A program made the translations under genes and the position numbers. Below are positions 189 to 41,561 of a DNA stretch of 41,585 bases, in pieces. Below the pieces are notes generated by a model that saw only the letters and a list, made by a program, of their open reading frames with translations, had not been told where the DNA came from and made no database searches. This stretch comes from a virus, in IMG/VR virus record IMGVR_UViG_3300025141_000231, positions 1 to 41,585 of that record; one strand, written 5' to 3'. Positions within the stretch are counted from its first letter, which is position 1; every line of letters begins with the position of its first letter.

Positions 189-956
189 CTAGCCTGCTAC
201 CAGTTCATTAAATGCACGGTCGACGTCAGTAGCTTCGGTTGTGCTGTACTTGATAGTCTCGCGAGCGCGTGACTCGGCGGATCCGTCTCCGGCGAGTTGC
301 TCATCGAGAATAGCGTCAACCTGCGCCGGAGTAAGACGTTCAAATAGACCGTCAAAATCCGGCATGCCATCAAGGAGGGCGGGGATAGCTTCAGGGTCCT
401 CAAGCAAAGTTGAGGTATTACGACGCATTTTCAGGCTCGTCTGGGGGTATGCTCCCGGCTTGGTGGGCTTCGTATACGTGAGAGTAATGTCAGTACCCTC
501 GGTCGCATCCGTAACATCACCGTACTCGGGGTCAAGGATGTAGCCGAGAAGGAGTTCATAGGCCGTCTTACCGTAGCCGTAAACCTTAATCCCTTCATCT
601 TCTCGACCACGAACAACTACAGGGCTGAAATAGCGGGTGCGCACAAAGAGTGACTTTGCAAGCTTTTTGCTCTCCTCGTCGTTGTTATCGCTTCCTTCTC
701 GCCAAAGCGAAGAAGCGAATTCGCAGATAGGACATGCCTCACTAAAATTACGCTTAGGACACAAGATTCCGCCCCTGTGGTCCCCTACGTTATAATGAAA
801 GAACATTTCCTTCAGTGGATCTCCGTCGTTAGTTGGAATGATCCGAATGTCGGTGTCTCCCTCGTCTGGCTTGAACCAAACAGAAGTAGAATCACCTTTG
901 TTTTCACCGCGCAAAGTTGCGAGCTTGCGGCGCATAAGCTCCATATCAATTGACAT
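189..956 (-). CDS. Single-stranded DNA-binding protein, T4 gp32-like
   Basis: 255 aa. It would coat single-stranded DNA during phage replication, recombination and repair. The region around residues 54-80 carries a zinc-site pattern like that of T4 gp32: His54 and His60, then Cys66, Cys75 and Cys78 (CPIC). The following region is rich in aromatic and basic residues, as expected for the ssDNA cleft. The first 20 residues are basic (MELMRRKLATLRGENK), like the gp32 N-terminal cooperativity domain. The C-terminus is acidic only in patches, less so than the T4 tail. The ATG follows AAAGGAGAAA. A sigma70-like promoter sits directly upstream and overlaps the end of the preceding tubulin-like gene, so it can be expressed alone. 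Two terminator-like hairpins follow. Confidence 0.85.
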   Translation of the reverse strand: MSIDMELMRRKLATLRGENKGDSTSVWFKPDEGDTDIRIIPTNDGDPLKEMFFHYNVGDHRGGILCPKRNFSEACPICEFASSLWREGSDNNDEESKKLAKSLFVRTRYFSPVVVRGREDEGIKVYGYGKTAYELLLGYILDPEYGDVTDATEGTDITLTYTKPTKPGAYPQTSLKMRRNTSTLLEDPEAIPALLDGMPDFDGLFERLTPAQVDAILDEQLAGDGSAESRARETIKYSTTEATDVDRAFNELVAG

Positions 957-982: not shown

Positions 983-1011
983 AGTATAACACACTTAACT
1001 TGAAGAGTCAA
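983..1011 (-). promoter_or_regulatory. Sigma70-type promoter for the ssDNA-binding protein gene
   Basis: On the minus strand TTGACT (1006-1011) and TATACT (983-988) are separated by exactly 17 bases. Each box differs from the bacterial consensus at one position. The -35 box lies inside the last codons of the 285-aa gene. Transcription would start about 20 bases before the ATG at 956. It is the only promoter of this class I saw in an intergenic position, fitting host-polymerase control of a replication gene. Confidence 0.75.
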
Positions 1012-1852
1012 GTGTTTTTTGTTCTTGTACTACGTTTGTGTGGGCAACGCAGAACCCAAAATCGCTGTGGGGTGTTTCGTATATTGCATAAGAAATCTTT
1101 CGAAATGCATTCTTAGGTTTTTGCTTAAGAATATCGACTAGCTTTTTGTGCAATCCCCCTTCCTTCATCAATCTTTCCTCGTTTATACACATATAATAAC
1201 ACAACTCACGAGGGGTGTCAAGGTCAAAAAACCATTTTTCTTCAAGATTTTCTACATTGAGGGCCGCAACGGCGCGAATCCGATTAATATCGGCTGGTCG
1301 GGAGACTTGCCCAATCTCGGGCTCGCTGAATTCAAAGTAATTAAGGTAATGAACGCATGAATAGATAGCATCATTAAGCCTGTCGAAATAAGATTTAATC
1401 GGTATTTGCCCGATGGACCTCTCCAAATTTAAATTGGAAATTAAGGTAATATTTTTAAACAATCCAGAACGCGCGTACTCTTGCAGGATATTAAACGTTA
1501 TTTTTTCTAACTGTTTTGGGCGCCCAGTCAACAGTTCAATATCTGGCTGGATGTAAAACAGTTCTATCTCCTGATCTTTTATTTGTTCTAAGATACCCAA
1601 TGTATAGTTGGAACTCATGGCAGAGCCTACAACAAAAACTTGGGCCCGATTTCGAACATTAGTAAAAAACTTTTTTAAATCAGGGATGTTTTCTTCATAC
1701 TCATCCGGATTTTCGAAGGGGAGTAATTTATACTTCTTCTTTGTATTGCGCTCTACTTGATCGTTTAAAACATAGACGTCATAATTTTTGACTACTTCAA
1801 ATTTTTGTGCAATTGCAGATGCACCATTTCCAATTCCAATGATAGATATCAT
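995..1852 (-). CDS. Divergent tubulin/FtsZ-superfamily protein
   Basis: 285 aa. Not confidently named, but its layout follows the FtsZ/tubulin nucleotide-binding domain. A glycine loop, GIGNGASAIAQKF (6-18), matches the T1 position. VFVVGSAMSSNYT (72-84) sits where FtsZ has its GGGTGSG loop but has lost the glycines. After it comes an FtsZ-like run, FYIQPDIELLTGRPKQLEK, then a helix and strand ending ITLISN, and a helix with SYFDRLNDAIYS (154-165) resembling the FtsZ segment that contacts the base. ADINRIRAV (187-195) is at the T7 position. The C-terminal third could be the second FtsZ domain. The ATG overlaps the polymerase stop as ATGA, so the two are translationally coupled. An alternative is an unrelated Rossmann-fold protein, given only the GxGxxA loop. 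A partner or regulator of the GTPase at 40416-41561 is an inference. Confidence 0.5.
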   Translation of the reverse strand: MISIIGIGNGASAIAQKFEVVKNYDVYVLNDQVERNTKKKYKLLPFENPDEYEENIPDLKKFFTNVRNRAQVFVVGSAMSSNYTLGILEQIKDQEIELFYIQPDIELLTGRPKQLEKITFNILQEYARSGLFKNITLISNLNLERSIGQIPIKSYFDRLNDAIYSCVHYLNYFEFSEPEIGQVSRPADINRIRAVAALNVENLEEKWFFDLDTPRELCYYMCINEERLMKEGGLHKKLVDILKQKPKNAFRKISYAIYETPHSDFGFCVAHTNVVQEQKTLDSSS

Positions 1853-3033
1853 AAATTCAATCCTTGCAGTTCATAATAGTTTTTTCCACAATTTAAATTT
1901 ACTAAATATTCACCTAATCTGTTTTTAGAAAATAGCTCTTTGATTTCAGGCACTATCTCTTTTTCGCTCTCTTCGAGATCTATAACGATTTCATCATGTA
2001 CTACAAAAGCCACAAAAGATTTTTTATTTTCTAAAAATTTGTCGATAGCCACGGCGCGCTCCAAGACAATATCCGAAGTTGTACTCTGTATAAGATAATT
2101 CAATGCTTTGCGTTTGTCAACAATTATTTTTCTATCGAAGGGAGTACTGACCACCGCTCCATCATACCAATCAGCCAATAATTGTTCTCGATGATAGCTT
2201 CCAAACTCATCGTCATTAGAATCATAATTATATAGCCATGCAAAAAAACGCACTTTTGCGTCTTCTCTGCTTAGTTCATCCTCAATTAAATTTTTAATAT
2301 GCCATTCGTGTACATCTTCTTGTGGCTGTTCTTCGCCCGCCAGAGCAATGAAGGTGCGCACTTCGGCCGCATTATAGTCTAAAGATAAAAGCCAATCGTT
2401 AGTGGGCTTTAAAAGCTTGCGAAACTCTTTCTGTAGCGTCAATATCGGGAACGAGTCCGGATACGTAGTGAGACGTCCTGTTACAGTTCCAAATAAATTA
2501 TAATCTATATAGGCGGGGCCGTGTAGAATCCTCTTGACTCGTGTTGAGTTATGAATTGAGTAGTGTAATTTCTTGCATCCCTCATTATTTAAGTTTAATT
2601 GCTGATATTTTATCTTGTGCAGCAATTTATGAATATCTAATAAGTGATCATAGTTAGAGGGTTTTGTGTGTGTCTCTAATACATGTTGTGTGATCTTATT
2701 TTTAATTTCGCAAAATTGTTTTAAAAAATCAGCCGGCACTAGATCGAATATACAATGATCCCGCATGCTAATCTTAGCCAATTGAAAAGATTTAATATAT
2801 GCCTTAAATTTCTTCTGGGTGCGTGCCAGTTCGTCTTTTAGCTCGGCCGGGCAGGCATCTTCCAGGCTTTTAGTTTCGCAATATAAAGAGGCGTATTCAA
2901 TATCTTCCCTAGTGTGGGAAGGCGTATATTTCCAGGTACGTGTCAGTTCAGAGGGAAAATTGTCATAATATATTTTACCATCACAATACACCCCTATACA
3001 TTCACTTTTATCATCTAACGATTGAAATAACAC
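1849..3033 (-). CDS. Family A DNA polymerase, polymerase domain only
   Basis: 394 aa. Template-directed DNA synthesis for phage replication. Motifs appear in order: FGTVTGRL (181-188), the TGR motif; motif A, LDYNAAEVR (218-226), with metal-binding Asp219 and Glu224; motif B, REDAKVRFFAWLY (256-268), aligning its Arg, Lys and Tyr with the Pol I O-helix; ALNYLIQSTTSDI (310-322); and motif C, VHDEIVID (345-352). Only about 180 residues precede the TGR motif, too few for the 3'-5' exonuclease domain of Pol I or T7 polymerase, and no exonuclease motifs are visible. It is thus far shorter than usual (600-900 aa). The start is GTG, preceded by AGGA. It overlaps the next gene by four bases. T4-type phages normally use a family B polymerase, so this pairing is unusual for the T4 model. 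Confidence 0.85.
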   Translation of the reverse strand: MLFQSLDDKSECIGVYCDGKIYYDNFPSELTRTWKYTPSHTREDIEYASLYCETKSLEDACPAELKDELARTQKKFKAYIKSFQLAKISMRDHCIFDLVPADFLKQFCEIKNKITQHVLETHTKPSNYDHLLDIHKLLHKIKYQQLNLNNEGCKKLHYSIHNSTRVKRILHGPAYIDYNLFGTVTGRLTTYPDSFPILTLQKEFRKLLKPTNDWLLSLDYNAAEVRTFIALAGEEQPQEDVHEWHIKNLIEDELSREDAKVRFFAWLYNYDSNDDEFGSYHREQLLADWYDGAVVSTPFDRKIIVDKRKALNYLIQSTTSDIVLERAVAIDKFLENKKSFVAFVVHDEIVIDLEESEKEIVPEIKELFSKNRLGEYLVNLNCGKNYYELQGLNL

Positions 3034-14221: not shown

Positions 14222-17164
14222 TTAATCATCAAATGATGCTCCTGTGGAAGCGATCACGAAGTCAATTGCAATGTATTCAATGGACCGCGCGGGCTTCACC
14301 ATAATTTTGGCGTACAGAATATTCTGGTCCACCAAATCAGGTGTGGTGGTAGATTCGTCAAGGACCAACCTATATTCTGTGATACCGAATCGTGTCACCA
14401 CGTTAGCCAGGAACGGCTCGATGAGTCCCTTAAAGCGTGTCCATGTTGCTTGAACATTTTGCTCAAAGAGAATTTGGGTTGACATGATAGAAATTTGCTT
14501 CTTCAAGTAAATCACCAATCGACGCACATTGATTCGATCAAGTGCCGATTGACGCTCTTGAAGTGTCTTTTGTCCAAAGACCACGATTCCACTAGAGGGG
14601 AAGGAGGCAATTGGATTAATTCGTGCATCATAAAGAGTGTCGCGCTCTTTCGAGGTTAACTTCTCCGTGACACCCGTAATTGGAATGCCGGCTGCACCGT
14701 CGCTTAAGCCACCGCGATTAAATCCGGCAGGCGCAAACCACAGTTCAGAGCTAGCCTCGGATGAACCGAGAACGCCGAGCATTGCAACCGTGGGGGGCGC
14801 CCACACTGAAACGCCGGTGTTTGCATCCCGAGTTTGAACCCAAGGATAGAACGTGGCGCCATAGCTCGAATCGATTCTACGATTACGCAGTGCTGTAGCA
14901 GCGGCTTTGGGAGTGGTAGCAACGCGAGATGCCTTAGTAGAGCGAGAAGAATACTGTCCTTCGGCTGCTGGCAAATATACATTTTGCAAATCAATGAGGG
15001 CCATCGCATCAGCACGGTCTCCGCAGATATCAATCATGTGTCCGGTGAGGCCATCTACAGTCAAGCCAGGGGCCGTCAACAAGTTCATGTCCAACGATTC
15101 TGGATCTGCAACTGTGTCGATTGCACGCTTGTATGTGTTATATGCATAACTATTGCGATCATTGACACTGCTAATATCCGTCATGCCTGTGTTGTACAGA
15201 GGATCGGGCTTTGTGATATCCCATCCGTCGACACCGCCCCAAACAGGCGCCGTAAACTGGGAATATCCCAAGTTAAGCAAATCGCCGTAAGAAGCGCTCG
15301 TGACGCTTGCGCCAGCAAGGCGCGAGCCTGACTGATACATATAGCCGCCATCACCAGTGGCCTTCACATTATCCAACGTAAAGACATATGAAAAGGATTC
15401 GATGCCGGCAACAGCGCTGCTGTTAACTGGATCGTCTACTGAGGTAGCAGTCCAGAAACGGTTCATGGAAGCTGCACTACGATCTGGGCGTGTGCTGGTT
15501 TCGCTTCGAGTCGATTGGAATCCCCAATATGCTTCATTTGCAGAATCAGCAAGTCCGCCATCGGAAGCCGAGAGACGTAGGAGTCCGACTGGGAAGGAGA
15601 AACTTCCAGTTAATTCGCCACCTTCTGCAGCCCCCGCGCGCCCTGTTTTAAACACGGTGGATCCACTCAACACACTTGTGGAACTCAGTACCATGCGACC
15701 ACTAAATTCACTTCCAGATGGTGCGAATGTGGATAGCACTGACTTGAAGCGAGGAGGACCATAATATCCCCATGGAAGCAGTTCGGCATCAGTTGCGCCG
15801 GCTTCTACTTCAGTATTCATCTCGACATACACAAACTTAGACTGGTTGGGATATTCGCCATATGTCTTAAGACGTCGGCTAGTGGTGTCCCATGAGTGAT
15901 ATTTGTCTCCGATCTTGCGTGCGATGAAATTAGGCGACGTGGGATCAAGCGTACAGTTATCGAAACGCTCCATAACTTGAACATTGCTGTCCGTATCCAT
16001 TAAGGACCGCAGAACAACACTGAATGTGCCGTAGTCGTTCACACTGTTTGTGGATTTTCTAATATTCTGAATAGAAATTTTAACGTTCTTTTGCAGCCAT
16101 TCGCCATGTCCGCGATCTTTCAAGCGGAAAAGCTGTTGCATATCGGTAGGTTCGAAAGCTGCGGATGTTCCCAAATCTTGAGCAATGAACCAGCCGGCCT
16201 TACCTCTTGCAGAGGAGGCGCCGATTCCTTTCAGATTTTGAGGGCCAGTCGTGGCAGTTCCGTATAAAGCAATCGGAAGCATTACACCGTGCAGAGCGGC
16301 GCTTGTTAAGTCACCACTACCGCTAACACCGGTAAAAGTACCATTTGGTTGCGTACCTACCCGAAGGGCTTGTTCGAAAGTCTCTCCTAACCAATAATTC
16401 TTCTTAGCTTTGGCTGGGAAGAATGTGCCTGCAGTAGAGACCAGTTGAGGATTGGTGCTGAAACGCTTGCGAACAAAGAGGTCCGAGCTATCATCAAGAT
16501 TGAATCGAATCTTTTCGCTAGCTAAATCGCTATTGCGAATTTCAACGGTAAAAGAGTTAGCATTGCTGGTATCATTGCCGATTACAGCGCCAATAGAGCC
16601 GGTGGTGCCCACAGCTGTGCCGAACAGAGTTCCACTTAAGGCGACTGTGCAGTTGGCATCTACATACCAAATGGCAGCCAAGACTCCCATTTGGTCAAGA
16701 TCACCTCCTAGTTCTGCTCCGCTAGAGGACGAAGGCCAAACCCATAAACCATAAGCACCGCCGTTGGCAGCGTAAGTGGTGCCAGGGTTTTGAGCGGTCT
16801 TCCAGCCGGCTTGTGCAGCCGTGGTGCCGGTTTGATTAGCGTTTTGCTCTCCTAGGAGGCGCACATATGTCAGGGGGGCCACATTTGAACGTAAGTAAGC
16901 TTTTGCGGCGAACGTGCCGTACATTGGAGATTGGCCATTGCCATCACGCCAAACATCTCCGCCGGCGCCTCCTGGGACTGTATCTCCGAATACTTCTACA
17001 AATTCTGAATAAGAAGTAACCTTGGTCGGCTGCATTGAAGGTCCGCGTGCGGCGCGACCGATAACAACTGGTCCAATAGCCTCCGGAGTCTTAGGAATGA
17101 AAGAATTATCGATTTCATTGATAAAAACACCAGGGGAGACAAATTTAAAGTTTTTTACTGACAT
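14222..17164 (-). CDS. Tail sheath protein, T4 gp18-like
   Basis: 980 aa; contractile sheath subunit. The N-terminus, FVSPGVFINEIDNSFIPKTP, followed by GPVVIGRAARGPSMQPTKV, is the classic sheath start. The C-terminal domain has VFGQKTLQERQSALDRINVR, RLVIYLKKQI, then the long helix ending in an EYRLVLDESTTTPDLVDQN segment and a last strand IEYIAIDFVIA, all hallmarks of the conserved sheath end. The middle 400 residues are an enlarged variable insertion, making it much longer than T4 gp18 (659 aa). That part is Ser/Thr/Gly-rich and would be exposed on the tail surface. Strong Shine-Dalgarno AAAAGGAA. Confidence 0.93.
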   Translation of the reverse strand: MSVKNFKFVSPGVFINEIDNSFIPKTPEAIGPVVIGRAARGPSMQPTKVTSYSEFVEVFGDTVPGGAGGDVWRDGNGQSPMYGTFAAKAYLRSNVAPLTYVRLLGEQNANQTGTTAAQAGWKTAQNPGTTYAANGGAYGLWVWPSSSSGAELGGDLDQMGVLAAIWYVDANCTVALSGTLFGTAVGTTGSIGAVIGNDTSNANSFTVEIRNSDLASEKIRFNLDDSSDLFVRKRFSTNPQLVSTAGTFFPAKAKKNYWLGETFEQALRVGTQPNGTFTGVSGSGDLTSAALHGVMLPIALYGTATTGPQNLKGIGASSARGKAGWFIAQDLGTSAAFEPTDMQQLFRLKDRGHGEWLQKNVKISIQNIRKSTNSVNDYGTFSVVLRSLMDTDSNVQVMERFDNCTLDPTSPNFIARKIGDKYHSWDTTSRRLKTYGEYPNQSKFVYVEMNTEVEAGATDAELLPWGYYGPPRFKSVLSTFAPSGSEFSGRMVLSSTSVLSGSTVFKTGRAGAAEGGELTGSFSFPVGLLRLSASDGGLADSANEAYWGFQSTRSETSTRPDRSAASMNRFWTATSVDDPVNSSAVAGIESFSYVFTLDNVKATGDGGYMYQSGSRLAGASVTSASYGDLLNLGYSQFTAPVWGGVDGWDITKPDPLYNTGMTDISSVNDRNSYAYNTYKRAIDTVADPESLDMNLLTAPGLTVDGLTGHMIDICGDRADAMALIDLQNVYLPAAEGQYSSRSTKASRVATTPKAAATALRNRRIDSSYGATFYPWVQTRDANTGVSVWAPPTVAMLGVLGSSEASSELWFAPAGFNRGGLSDGAAGIPITGVTEKLTSKERDTLYDARINPIASFPSSGIVVFGQKTLQERQSALDRINVRRLVIYLKKQISIMSTQILFEQNVQATWTRFKGLIEPFLANVVTRFGITEYRLVLDESTTTPDLVDQNILYAKIMVKPARSIEYIAIDFVIASTGASFDD

Positions 17165-40415: not shown

Positions 40416-41561
40416 CTATGTTGCTAATCCATTCATACTTAGTATCGCAATCAATCCAGGTACATTCTTTCGGACGTAAACGCCAGAGAAAAGTGTCTCG
40501 CACCGACCCCCGACATAAGCGATTGCCGACTCAATGTTTTTACTGATCTTGGGATCCGCGACCATCTCCTCTGAAGCTACTAGAATCAAAGAGCCGGCTG
40601 CTGCTTTACCCTTTGGTGGGGGGCATGCTGACCGATTCATGCAGTTGTGAAGTATCACCGATCCAAGCTTTCCAGTGTTAGGATCCTTGATCATCGTCGA
40701 GCCTACAAAGGCGCGACCGTCATTACCCAAGCACGTTTCCAGATCTTTACCATCAAAAGATTGGATCGGTGATTCTTCAGTGGAGAGTTTTAATACTTGG
40801 GCTAATGATTTTGCAAATTGTGTATTGGCGACAGGATACATGCCAAGCATGCCAATTCTGCCGCGGAGTAATCGTGTGGCGCGTTCGTTATCCAAAATGA
40901 TATGTGGATATTTGGCAGCATCGTTTGCCAAGGTTAACGCATTTCGAGCGATGGTGGGGTTAAGATTTTCTTGTGCGGTTGGCCAAGAAACTATATAAAC
41001 GACTTTACCAGAAGACTGAACGGAGCGCATATAACGCTCAAAGACAGGATGCAGAGCAGTGACAGAGCTACCGGTGCCGCCGCCGCCACCAGCAAGAACA
41101 AATAACCAATCAACTTTTCCAAGTTTGATGCGGAGAGCATCTTCAATAATCGCGCCATTTTGTGTAAATACCTCTTTTCCATAATCCACGTTTTTTCCAA
41201 TTCCGTCTGAATCAGGGATTAGTACGACATGGTCTTCTTCAACGTTTTTCGGAATGTCTTTGCCGGTGGTGTTCACCAAGAGTGTCTTGTTGAATCCCAA
41301 CTCTAGAAAAGCATTCGCCATTTTGTTGCCTCCGCCGCCGACGCCAACAAAGCCCACGTTCAATGAAGTGGGCGCTGTGTTTTCTGGGAGGAGATCTTCA
41401 TCAGAATATTCCATCTGGAGACCGAAGTCCTCAACCATTCCGAAATCTTCAGCGGCTACTTCTTCATGATAGTGGTCTTTCTCCTGGTTAAAGGAGGGAG
41501 GAGGCTCTGCGGGAGGCAGAAAATCAAACTCGTCTTTTTCGTCGTTTTTGTTGTCGCTCAT
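40416..41561 (-). CDS. Tubulin/FtsZ-superfamily GTPase
   Basis: 381 aa. Residues 69-381 follow FtsZ: T1 loop VGVGGGGNKMANAF (72-85), VNTTGKDI (96-103) at the T3 region, and the tubulin signature GGGGGTGSS (158-166). ATRLLRGRI then GMYPVANTQFAKSLAQVLKL (240-259) matches the base-contacting helix. FDGKDLETCL (269-278) aligns with the T7 loop NVDFADVRTVM, keeping both Asp residues (270, 273) that complete the GTPase site across subunits. So polymer-forming GTPase activity is expected. Residues 1-66 are an extra acidic, Pro-rich, disordered tail. It is the first gene of the block and 24 bases of leader are visible, with AAAGG before the ATG. Jumbo-phage PhuZ and plasmid TubZ show such proteins can position DNA or phage particles; whether it does this here is inferred. 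Confidence 0.85.
   Translation of the reverse strand: MSDNKNDEKDEFDFLPPAEPPPSFNQEKDHYHEEVAAEDFGMVEDFGLQMEYSDEDLLPENTAPTSLNVGFVGVGGGGNKMANAFLELGFNKTLLVNTTGKDIPKNVEEDHVVLIPDSDGIGKNVDYGKEVFTQNGAIIEDALRIKLGKVDWLFVLAGGGGGTGSSVTALHPVFERYMRSVQSSGKVVYIVSWPTAQENLNPTIARNALTLANDAAKYPHIILDNERATRLLRGRIGMLGMYPVANTQFAKSLAQVLKLSTEESPIQSFDGKDLETCLGNDGRAFVGSTMIKDPNTGKLGSVILHNCMNRSACPPPKGKAAAGSLILVASEEMVADPKISKNIESAIAYVGGRCETLFSGVYVRKNVPGLIAILSMNGLAT

What the first reader, a model, noticed from the sequence alone, without database searches (positions are those of the whole stretch)
995..1852. A second, degenerate tubulin-like protein coupled to the DNA polymerase
The 285-aa protein keeps the FtsZ-like order (glycine loop, PD-rich run, a LNDAIYS helix, ADINRIR) but the glycine signature is replaced by VVGSAMSSNYT. 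It would be a non-hydrolysing paralogue. It overlaps the polymerase gene by four bases and ends in the ssDNA-binding protein promoter, so it is part of a replication operon. A catalytic and a dead tubulin-like protein in one phage suggests a two-part system tying replication to positioning.
Basis: inference. Interest (0 to 1): 0.85.

Follow-up and report, generated by a model that had tools for sequence, protein, structure and literature searches.

The report
Dead tubulin-fold protein beside phage polymerase
A large group of uncultivated phages carries, besides a normal-looking tubulin/FtsZ-type GTPase, a second protein with the same fold whose phosphate-binding and GTP-cutting parts are gone, and its gene is nearly always locked by a 4-base overlap to the phage's DNA polymerase gene, which points to a tubulin turned into a replication part.

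Summary
Window 995-1852 (minus strand) is a real, conserved gene (at least 492 related stretches in IMG/VR; dN/dS about 0.09). No sequence library recognises it, but its AlphaFold2 model (pLDDT 92) matches FtsZ/TubZ over its full length (Foldseek E 2e-13; the top 50 PDB hits are all FtsZ or TubZ). It keeps the base-binding side of the GTP pocket (T1 Gly, T5 Pro, T6 Asn, H7 Asn, all about 98-100% conserved) but has lost the GGGTGTG phosphate loop, the T7 catalytic motif and helix H8. It is a probable pseudo-GTPase. The 381-aa protein is a normal-looking FtsZ/CetZ-type GTPase. The gene follows the polymerase in every relative with room to see it (115 of 119 with the same 4-bp overlap) and precedes the SSB gene, whose conserved sigma70-type promoters lie inside it. 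The proposed two-part system with the 381-aa tubulin is weakly supported: both occur together in all long contigs of this group, but a sister clade has the 381-aa tubulin alone, and the two proteins have discordant histories (r 0.12, versus 0.75 with the polymerase). I favour a replication accessory protein derived from a tubulin. The function is inferred, not shown.

The parts
995..1852 (-). 285-aa degenerate tubulin/FtsZ-fold protein (P0001)
   Evidence: family; AF2 pLDDT 91.9, pTM 0.90; Foldseek FtsZ/TubZ E 2.4e-13
1817..1837 (-). T1-loop equivalent, residues 6-12 (GIGNGAS; family consensus GIGNAAS in place of GVGGGGGN)
   Evidence: alignment A2: G8 invariant, G6 95/96; hhalign pairs it with FtsZ VIGVGGGGG
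1607..1627 (-). T4 loop equivalent, residues 76-82 (GSAMSSN; consensus GSSxSSN in place of GGGTGTG)
   Evidence: residue counts; position between strand 69-75 and helix 79-89 of the model
1541..1546 (-). T5 equivalent, P103-D104, invariant
1433..1438 (-). T6 equivalent, S139-N140 (N in 94/96; guanine-contacting Asn165 of E. coli FtsZ)
   Evidence: role of N165 from PMC8456036; pairing by secondary structure, inference
1328..1399 (-). core helix H7, residues 152-175, with invariant N160 (equivalent to E. coli FtsZ N186)
   Evidence: pairing by secondary structure, inference
1280..1327 (-). region where FtsZ has T7-H8: no GxxNxD motif, no helix (residues 176-191)
   Evidence: DSSP of the model; conservation
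983..1011 (-). conserved sigma70-type promoter-like site of the SSB gene (TTGACT-17-TATACT) at the 3' end of the gene; overlaps an inverted repeat 1015-991
1193..1221 (-). second conserved sigma70-type site inside the gene (TTGACA-17-TATTAT; identical in 104 of 123 homologues)
1849..3033 (-). short family-A DNA polymerase, 394 aa, GTG start, 4-bp overlap with the 285-aa gene
189..956 (-). gp32-like single-strand DNA-binding protein
40416..41561 (-). 381-aa FtsZ/CetZ-type protein (P0002) with intact T4 and T7
   Evidence: (hhalign to E. coli FtsZ E 2.9e-10)
41064..41090 (-). P0002 T4 phosphate loop GGGGGTGSS (residues 158-166)
40743..40754 (-). P0002 T7/H8 catalytic aspartates D270 and D273, both invariant
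   Evidence: aligned with E. coli FtsZ D209/D212

Best explanation
The 285-aa protein is a strongly diverged, full-length member of the tubulin/FtsZ fold class that has lost the parts needed to bind the GTP phosphates, to hydrolyse GTP and to pack head to tail, so it is very probably neither a GTPase nor an ordinary filament subunit (about 0.9). It most likely works as an accessory protein of the phage replisome: it is made in fixed ratio with the short family-A polymerase by translational coupling, and binds that polymerase and/or the polymerase-SSB-DNA complex as a scaffold or regulator. The kept base side of the pocket suggests that it may still bind a guanine nucleotide or nucleoside as a ligand, possibly as a sensor. 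Shown here: fold (predicted), loop losses, operon, promoter-like sites, shared divergence with the polymerase. Inferred: lack of GTPase activity, fixed ratio, physical binding to the polymerase, ligand binding.
For: Fold: AF2 pLDDT 91.9, pTM 0.90. Foldseek against PDB: all 50 top hits FtsZ or TubZ, E about 2e-13 for the best, TM 0.62-0.72 for all but one of them, alignment spanning both domains. Against viral models: five tubulin/FtsZ-like proteins (E 1e-12 to 6e-7), then a drop to 8e-4. Residual sequence signal: among 149 ORFs of G028 and 25 other ORFs of the window, the best hhalign partner of the family profile is the FtsZ-like protein in both cases (E 0.003 and 0.039); the S1-H1-S2 segment finds the T1 loop of P0002 above all 300 shuffles. 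Lost motifs and kept G8, P103, N140, N160. Operon: 119 of 119 homologues with a readable upstream polymerase have it next door, 115 with exactly 4 bp overlap, and none with room lacks polymerase or SSB. Downstream cassette carries RecA-like, 5'-3' exonuclease, DnaB-like helicase and ribonucleotide reductase genes. Distance correlation with polymerase r=0.75 and SSB 0.58 against 0.12 with P0002 (0.75/0.60/0.19 without the window).
Against: No interaction or activity has been measured. Operon neighbours share inheritance by linkage, and terL, about 34 kb away, correlates as well (r=0.81), so the correlation shows shared inheritance rather than contact. The sister clade's short polymerase works without this protein, so it is not a general requirement of that polymerase type. 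Overall sequence similarity to any tubulin is not significant by standard searches.
Confidence: 0.5

Rival explanations
1. One reading: the dead tubulin is the replisome-side adaptor or cap of filaments made by the 381-aa tubulin P0002, tying DNA synthesis to positioning.
For: Both genes occur in every contig of this family long enough to show both, on the same strand about 39-45 kb apart. P0002 has invariant catalytic residues. A dead subunit with altered top and bottom faces could cap or anchor a filament.
Against: The sister clade has P0002 (about 50-53% identity to P0002) without the 285-aa protein: no profile hit in 12 of 14 records, five of which also carry the polymerase and SSB. Divergence histories are discordant, e.g. 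circular-looking G003: P0001 48-53% but P0002 86-98% to most others. The genes are not adjacent.
Confidence: 0.2
2. Antagonist of host FtsZ: a diverged FtsZ-like protein that caps or poisons the host Z-ring during infection.
For: Phage proteins that act on FtsZ are known (lambda Kil, PMC3961180; T5 Hdi, PMC10714956; T7 Gp0.4, PMC13423816). Closest solved structures are FtsZ.
Against: Sits in the replication operon, coupled to polymerase, instead of among early host-takeover genes. The known inhibitors named here are unrelated small proteins or peptides (from memory). No host is known.
Confidence: 0.1
3. DNA- or RNA-binding regulator of the operon, for instance acting on the promoter-like sites embedded in its own gene, with the fold used only as a scaffold.
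For: Two conserved sigma70-type sites and an inverted repeat lie in its 3' end.
Against: No known DNA-binding domain was found. A promoter inside a gene needs no role of that gene's product.
Confidence: 0.12
4. Not a tubulin relative: a different Rossmann-type protein that AF2/Foldseek match by chance.
For: No significant sequence match to tubulins; weak Pfam hits to NADP-binding families at E about 0.002.
Against: High-confidence model, both domains and the H7 connector matched, 50 of 50 top PDB hits FtsZ/TubZ; the best non-tubulin viral fold is nearly nine orders of magnitude weaker than the best FtsZ-like one.
Confidence: 0.03

Closest known systems
FtsZ (bacterial; top Foldseek hits such as 8h1o, 4dxd, 2vxy)
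   Same: Two-domain fold with core helix H7; T1 glycine, T5 proline, T6 Asn and H7 Asn kept
   Different: No GGGTG(T/S)G, no GxxNxD T7, no H8 in the model; 9-13% identity; no C-terminal tail peptide; gene coupled to a DNA polymerase
PhuZ of nucleus-forming jumbo phages (phiKZ, 201phi2-1)
   Same: Tubulin-fold protein coded by a large phage
   Different: PhuZ forms dynamic filaments, the spindle (PMC4244570, PMC3678025). The window's candidate for that role is P0002; the 285-aa protein lacks the catalytic parts
TubZ (plasmids; phage c-st)
   Same: Fold (4ei7, E 1e-12)
   Different: TubZ is an active partition filament protein with TubR and tubS; none of the catalytic loops here and the neighbours are replication genes
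FtsZ-like 1 / FtsZl1 family (PMC2875224)
   Same: A strongly diverged second FtsZ-like family carried next to a normal FtsZ, with T6-H7 and C-terminal parts not recognisable
   Different: FtsZl1 keeps the GGGTG(S/T)G loop and sits in vWA membrane-associated operons of cells; here that loop is lost and the context is a phage replisome
CetZ (3zid) / FtsZ as relatives of the 381-aa P0002
   Same: P0002 has intact T4 and T7 and matches CetZ at E 2.6e-20
   Different: P0002 is phage-coded, has a disordered N-terminal tail of about 60 aa, and lacks close relatives in INPHARED and PLSDB

Membership tests
Tubulin/FtsZ superfamily (fold) | N-terminal nucleotide-binding domain, core helix H7 and C-terminal domain in one chain | tested here: met
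   (predicted structure, Foldseek)
Tubulin/FtsZ superfamily (sequence) | Significant match to the superfamily profile (PF00091 and others) | tested here: not met
   no match; hhalign E 0.09 and 0.008 only
Tubulin/FtsZ GTPase (active) | GGGTG(S/T)G signature in T4 | tested here: not met
   GSSxSSN in the family, no member of the 96 with the signature
Tubulin/FtsZ GTPase (active) | T7 synergy loop GxxNxD and H8 | tested here: not met
   No such motif after H7; no helix in that region of the model
Tubulin/FtsZ GTPase (active) | Guanine-contacting Asn in T6 and H7 | tested here: met
   N140 94/96, N160 96/96; role from PMC8456036; residue pairing by secondary structure, not by a coordinate superposition
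Cytomotive filament protein (PhuZ/TubZ) | GTP-dependent polymerisation | not testable with these tools
   Needs purified protein; loss of T7, H8 and the phosphate loop argues against it
Polymerase accessory protein | Binds the DNA polymerase and alters its activity | not testable with these tools
   Only operon and shared-divergence evidence
P0002 as FtsZ/CetZ-type GTPase | Pfam Tubulin over cut-off, T4 GGGTG, T7 Asp pair, fold | tested here: met

The most novel reading that the evidence does not exclude
A tubulin was turned into a non-hydrolysing, guanine-nucleotide-sensing subunit of a phage DNA polymerase holoenzyme, made in fixed ratio by translational coupling. It would be the first tubulin-fold replisome component known to me, and it may dock the replisome on the phage's own P0002 filament.
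Probability: 0.2. Interest if true: 0.92.

Novelty: new variant of a known kind. Interest (0 to 1): 0.72.

Why it matters
Characterised tubulin-superfamily proteins act through GTP-driven filaments. A whole phage family that keeps a tubulin without the GTP-cutting parts, fixed next to the DNA polymerase, gives a natural case of a tubulin recruited to a non-cytoskeletal task and a direct way to test whether phage replication and phage cytoskeleton are physically linked. The family is large (hundreds of contigs) and absent from cultured phage records and function libraries, so sequence-based annotation has missed it.

Tried and rejected
(1) Sequence-only classification: Pfam, PHROGs and PDB sequence searches gave nothing or chance hits (uteroglobin, cysteine synthase, NADP oxidoreductase). 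(2) Relatives in cultured phages and in cellular genomes: none found. (3) A hidden homologue in the sister clade genome G028: none by profile search or by hhalign of 149 ORFs of 150-700 aa; a homologue beyond sequence detection cannot be excluded. (4) Direct profile-profile proof of homology to FtsZ: too weak alone; the segment-by-segment PSSM scan is convincing only for the T1 region. (5) The discordant P0002 history might be a chimera at the window's end, since P0002 is the last gene and homology switches at about 40,400; dropping the window leaves the result unchanged. (6) A different Rossmann family: rejected. (7) Literature searches for phage tubulin pseudo-GTPases found none; the library lacks most subscription papers.

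Full report
The sequence. The ORF is on the minus strand at 995-1852 (285 aa). Its ATG overlaps the TGA of a 394-aa family-A polymerase gene by four bases and it is followed by a gp32-like SSB gene. The window is a 41.6-kb IMG/VR virus record and holds the structural module of a myovirus: terminase, portal, protease, major head protein, 980-aa tail sheath, tube, baseplate. The 381-aa FtsZ-like gene lies at its other end, on the same strand.

Is the gene real? Single-protein and alignment searches found 104 and at least 492 homologous stretches in IMG/VR, a second subgroup at about 50% identity, none in cultured phages and none confirmed in cellular genomes. Median pairwise dN/dS is 0.09 (25 usable pairs). 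Of 123 distinct homologues, all 119 with a readable upstream polymerase have it immediately upstream, 115 of them with the identical 4-bp overlap. Every one with room has the SSB gene downstream.

What fold? No library recognises the sequence. AF2 on a 96-member alignment gave pLDDT 91.9 and pTM 0.90, with the strand-helix order of FtsZ. Foldseek against PDB returned only FtsZ and TubZ among the first 50 (E 2.4e-13 to 1.5e-11; TM-score by query length mostly 0.62-0.72, one outlier 0.42). Against viral models it returned five tubulin/FtsZ-like proteins and then a clear drop. Sequence signal is weak but points the same way. Of all ORFs tested in two genomes, the FtsZ-like protein is the best non-self partner of the family profile in each, and the T1 region of P0002 beats 300 shuffles.

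What is lost and kept? By the order of secondary-structure elements (my pairing; no coordinate superposition was possible), the T4 signature GGGTGTG is GSSxSSN, the T7 motif GxxNxD is missing, and no helix stands in the place of H8. Kept are the T1 glycine G8 (96/96), the T5 proline P103 (96/96), the T6 asparagine N140 (94/96), an aromatic residue four positions before the H7 asparagine (F/Y156, 93/96), and the H7 asparagine N160 (96/96). In FtsZ the T6 Asn and H7 recognise guanine, T4 holds the phosphates, and T7 of the next subunit triggers hydrolysis (PMC8456036). So the base side is kept while the phosphate and catalytic sides are gone: a pseudo-GTPase that may still bind a guanine ligand. 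The ligand part is inference.

The 381-aa protein. P0002 passes the Pfam Tubulin cut-off, aligns with E. coli FtsZ through T7 (E 2.9e-10), has invariant GGGTG and D270/D273, and folds like CetZ/FtsZ. It is the only recognisable tubulin in each of eight large records.

Do they form a pair? Within this family both are present in every contig long enough to show both. All eight contigs over 130 kb have both, as does the 203-kb G027, at similar spacing on one strand. But a sister clade (for example G028, 236 kb) has P0002 at about 50-53% identity, plus polymerase, SSB and RecA-like genes, with two unrelated genes (about 200 and 230-240 aa) in the slot between polymerase and SSB and no detectable P0001. 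Over 14 genomes, P0001 distances correlate with the polymerase (r 0.75), terminase (0.81) and SSB (0.58) but not with P0002 (0.12); results are the same without the window. In G003, whose P0002 gene is split across the two contig ends as in a circular genome, P0001 is 48-53% identical to all others while P0002 is 94-98% identical to most of them (86-87% to two, 64% to G020 and G027). P0002 has thus apparently been exchanged between lineages independently of P0001, which speaks against a tight, exclusive pair. In the window itself the switch lies at about 40,400 at the contig's end, so there an assembly chimera is also possible.

Expression. A sigma70-type promoter-like site at the end of the gene (1011-983), and a second one inside it (1221-1193, identical in 104 of 123 homologues), are conserved well beyond codon constraint. 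A weaker conserved signal lies upstream of the polymerase. A reasonable reading is a polymerase-P0001 transcript plus separate strong transcription of SSB.

How it most likely works. I take it as an accessory of the phage replisome, made in fixed ratio with the polymerase and bound to it, possibly regulated by a guanine nucleotide. Shown: gene, predicted fold, lost motifs, operon, shared divergence. Inferred: lack of activity, binding, ligand. The adaptor-to-filament model, a host-FtsZ antagonist and a DNA-binding regulator remain open with lower weight.

Comparison. PhuZ and TubZ are active filament proteins (PMC4244570, PMC3678025, PMC7950403). FtsZl1 is a diverged second FtsZ-like family but keeps the GTP loop and a membrane-linked context (PMC2875224). 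A survey of jumbo phages speaks of two kinds of phage FtsZ/tubulin and does not, in the passages read, mention inactive ones (PMC7824862). I found no report of a tubulin-fold pseudo-GTPase in a replication operon; the searched library is incomplete. Membership: it has the tubulin/FtsZ fold, but it is not an FtsZ/tubulin GTPase by the two motif tests.

Noticed in passing
window 1193-1221 and 983-1011, minus strand: Two sigma70-type promoter-like sites conserved across about 120 homologues lie inside the 3' part of the tubulin-like gene and presumably drive the SSB gene; the distal one overlaps an inverted repeat (1015-991) that could be an operator or a terminator.
   Followed up: partly
window 40416-41561; homology switch at about 40400: The window's FtsZ-like gene is 91-95% identical to one subgroup, while all genes up to about 40,355 belong to another subgroup whose FtsZ-like gene is only about 62% identical: horizontal exchange of the tubulin gene or an assembly chimera at the contig end.
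   Followed up: partly
window 1849-3033: The family-A DNA polymerase is only 394 aa, with no exonuclease domain matched and the polymerase profile matched mainly in its C-terminal part; the sister clade has the same short form.
   Followed up: no
window 41380-41561: P0002 carries a disordered N-terminal tail of about 60 aa with a strongly conserved acidic motif (DFGMVEDFGLQMEYSDEDLLPENTAP), a candidate docking peptide.
   Followed up: no
L312:6212-7496 (G028 clade): Between polymerase and SSB the sister clade has two unrelated conserved genes, about 200 aa with PGGLLDHALKIL (HD-like, from memory) and about 230-240 aa, both without a Pfam match.
   Followed up: partly
G003 (locus L255, contig of 194231 bases): The FtsZ-like gene is split across both contig ends, suggesting a circular or circularly permuted complete genome of about 194 kb for this family.
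   Followed up: no
L164:2989-3852 (minus) and relatives L227-L245: A subgroup at about 50% identity has GSGRTAN at the T4 position and GIGTAGENV at T1, slightly closer to the tubulin signatures, perhaps an earlier stage of decay.
   Followed up: partly
window 14222-17164: Very long tail sheath protein (980 aa) with the sheath match in its C-terminal part.
   Followed up: no
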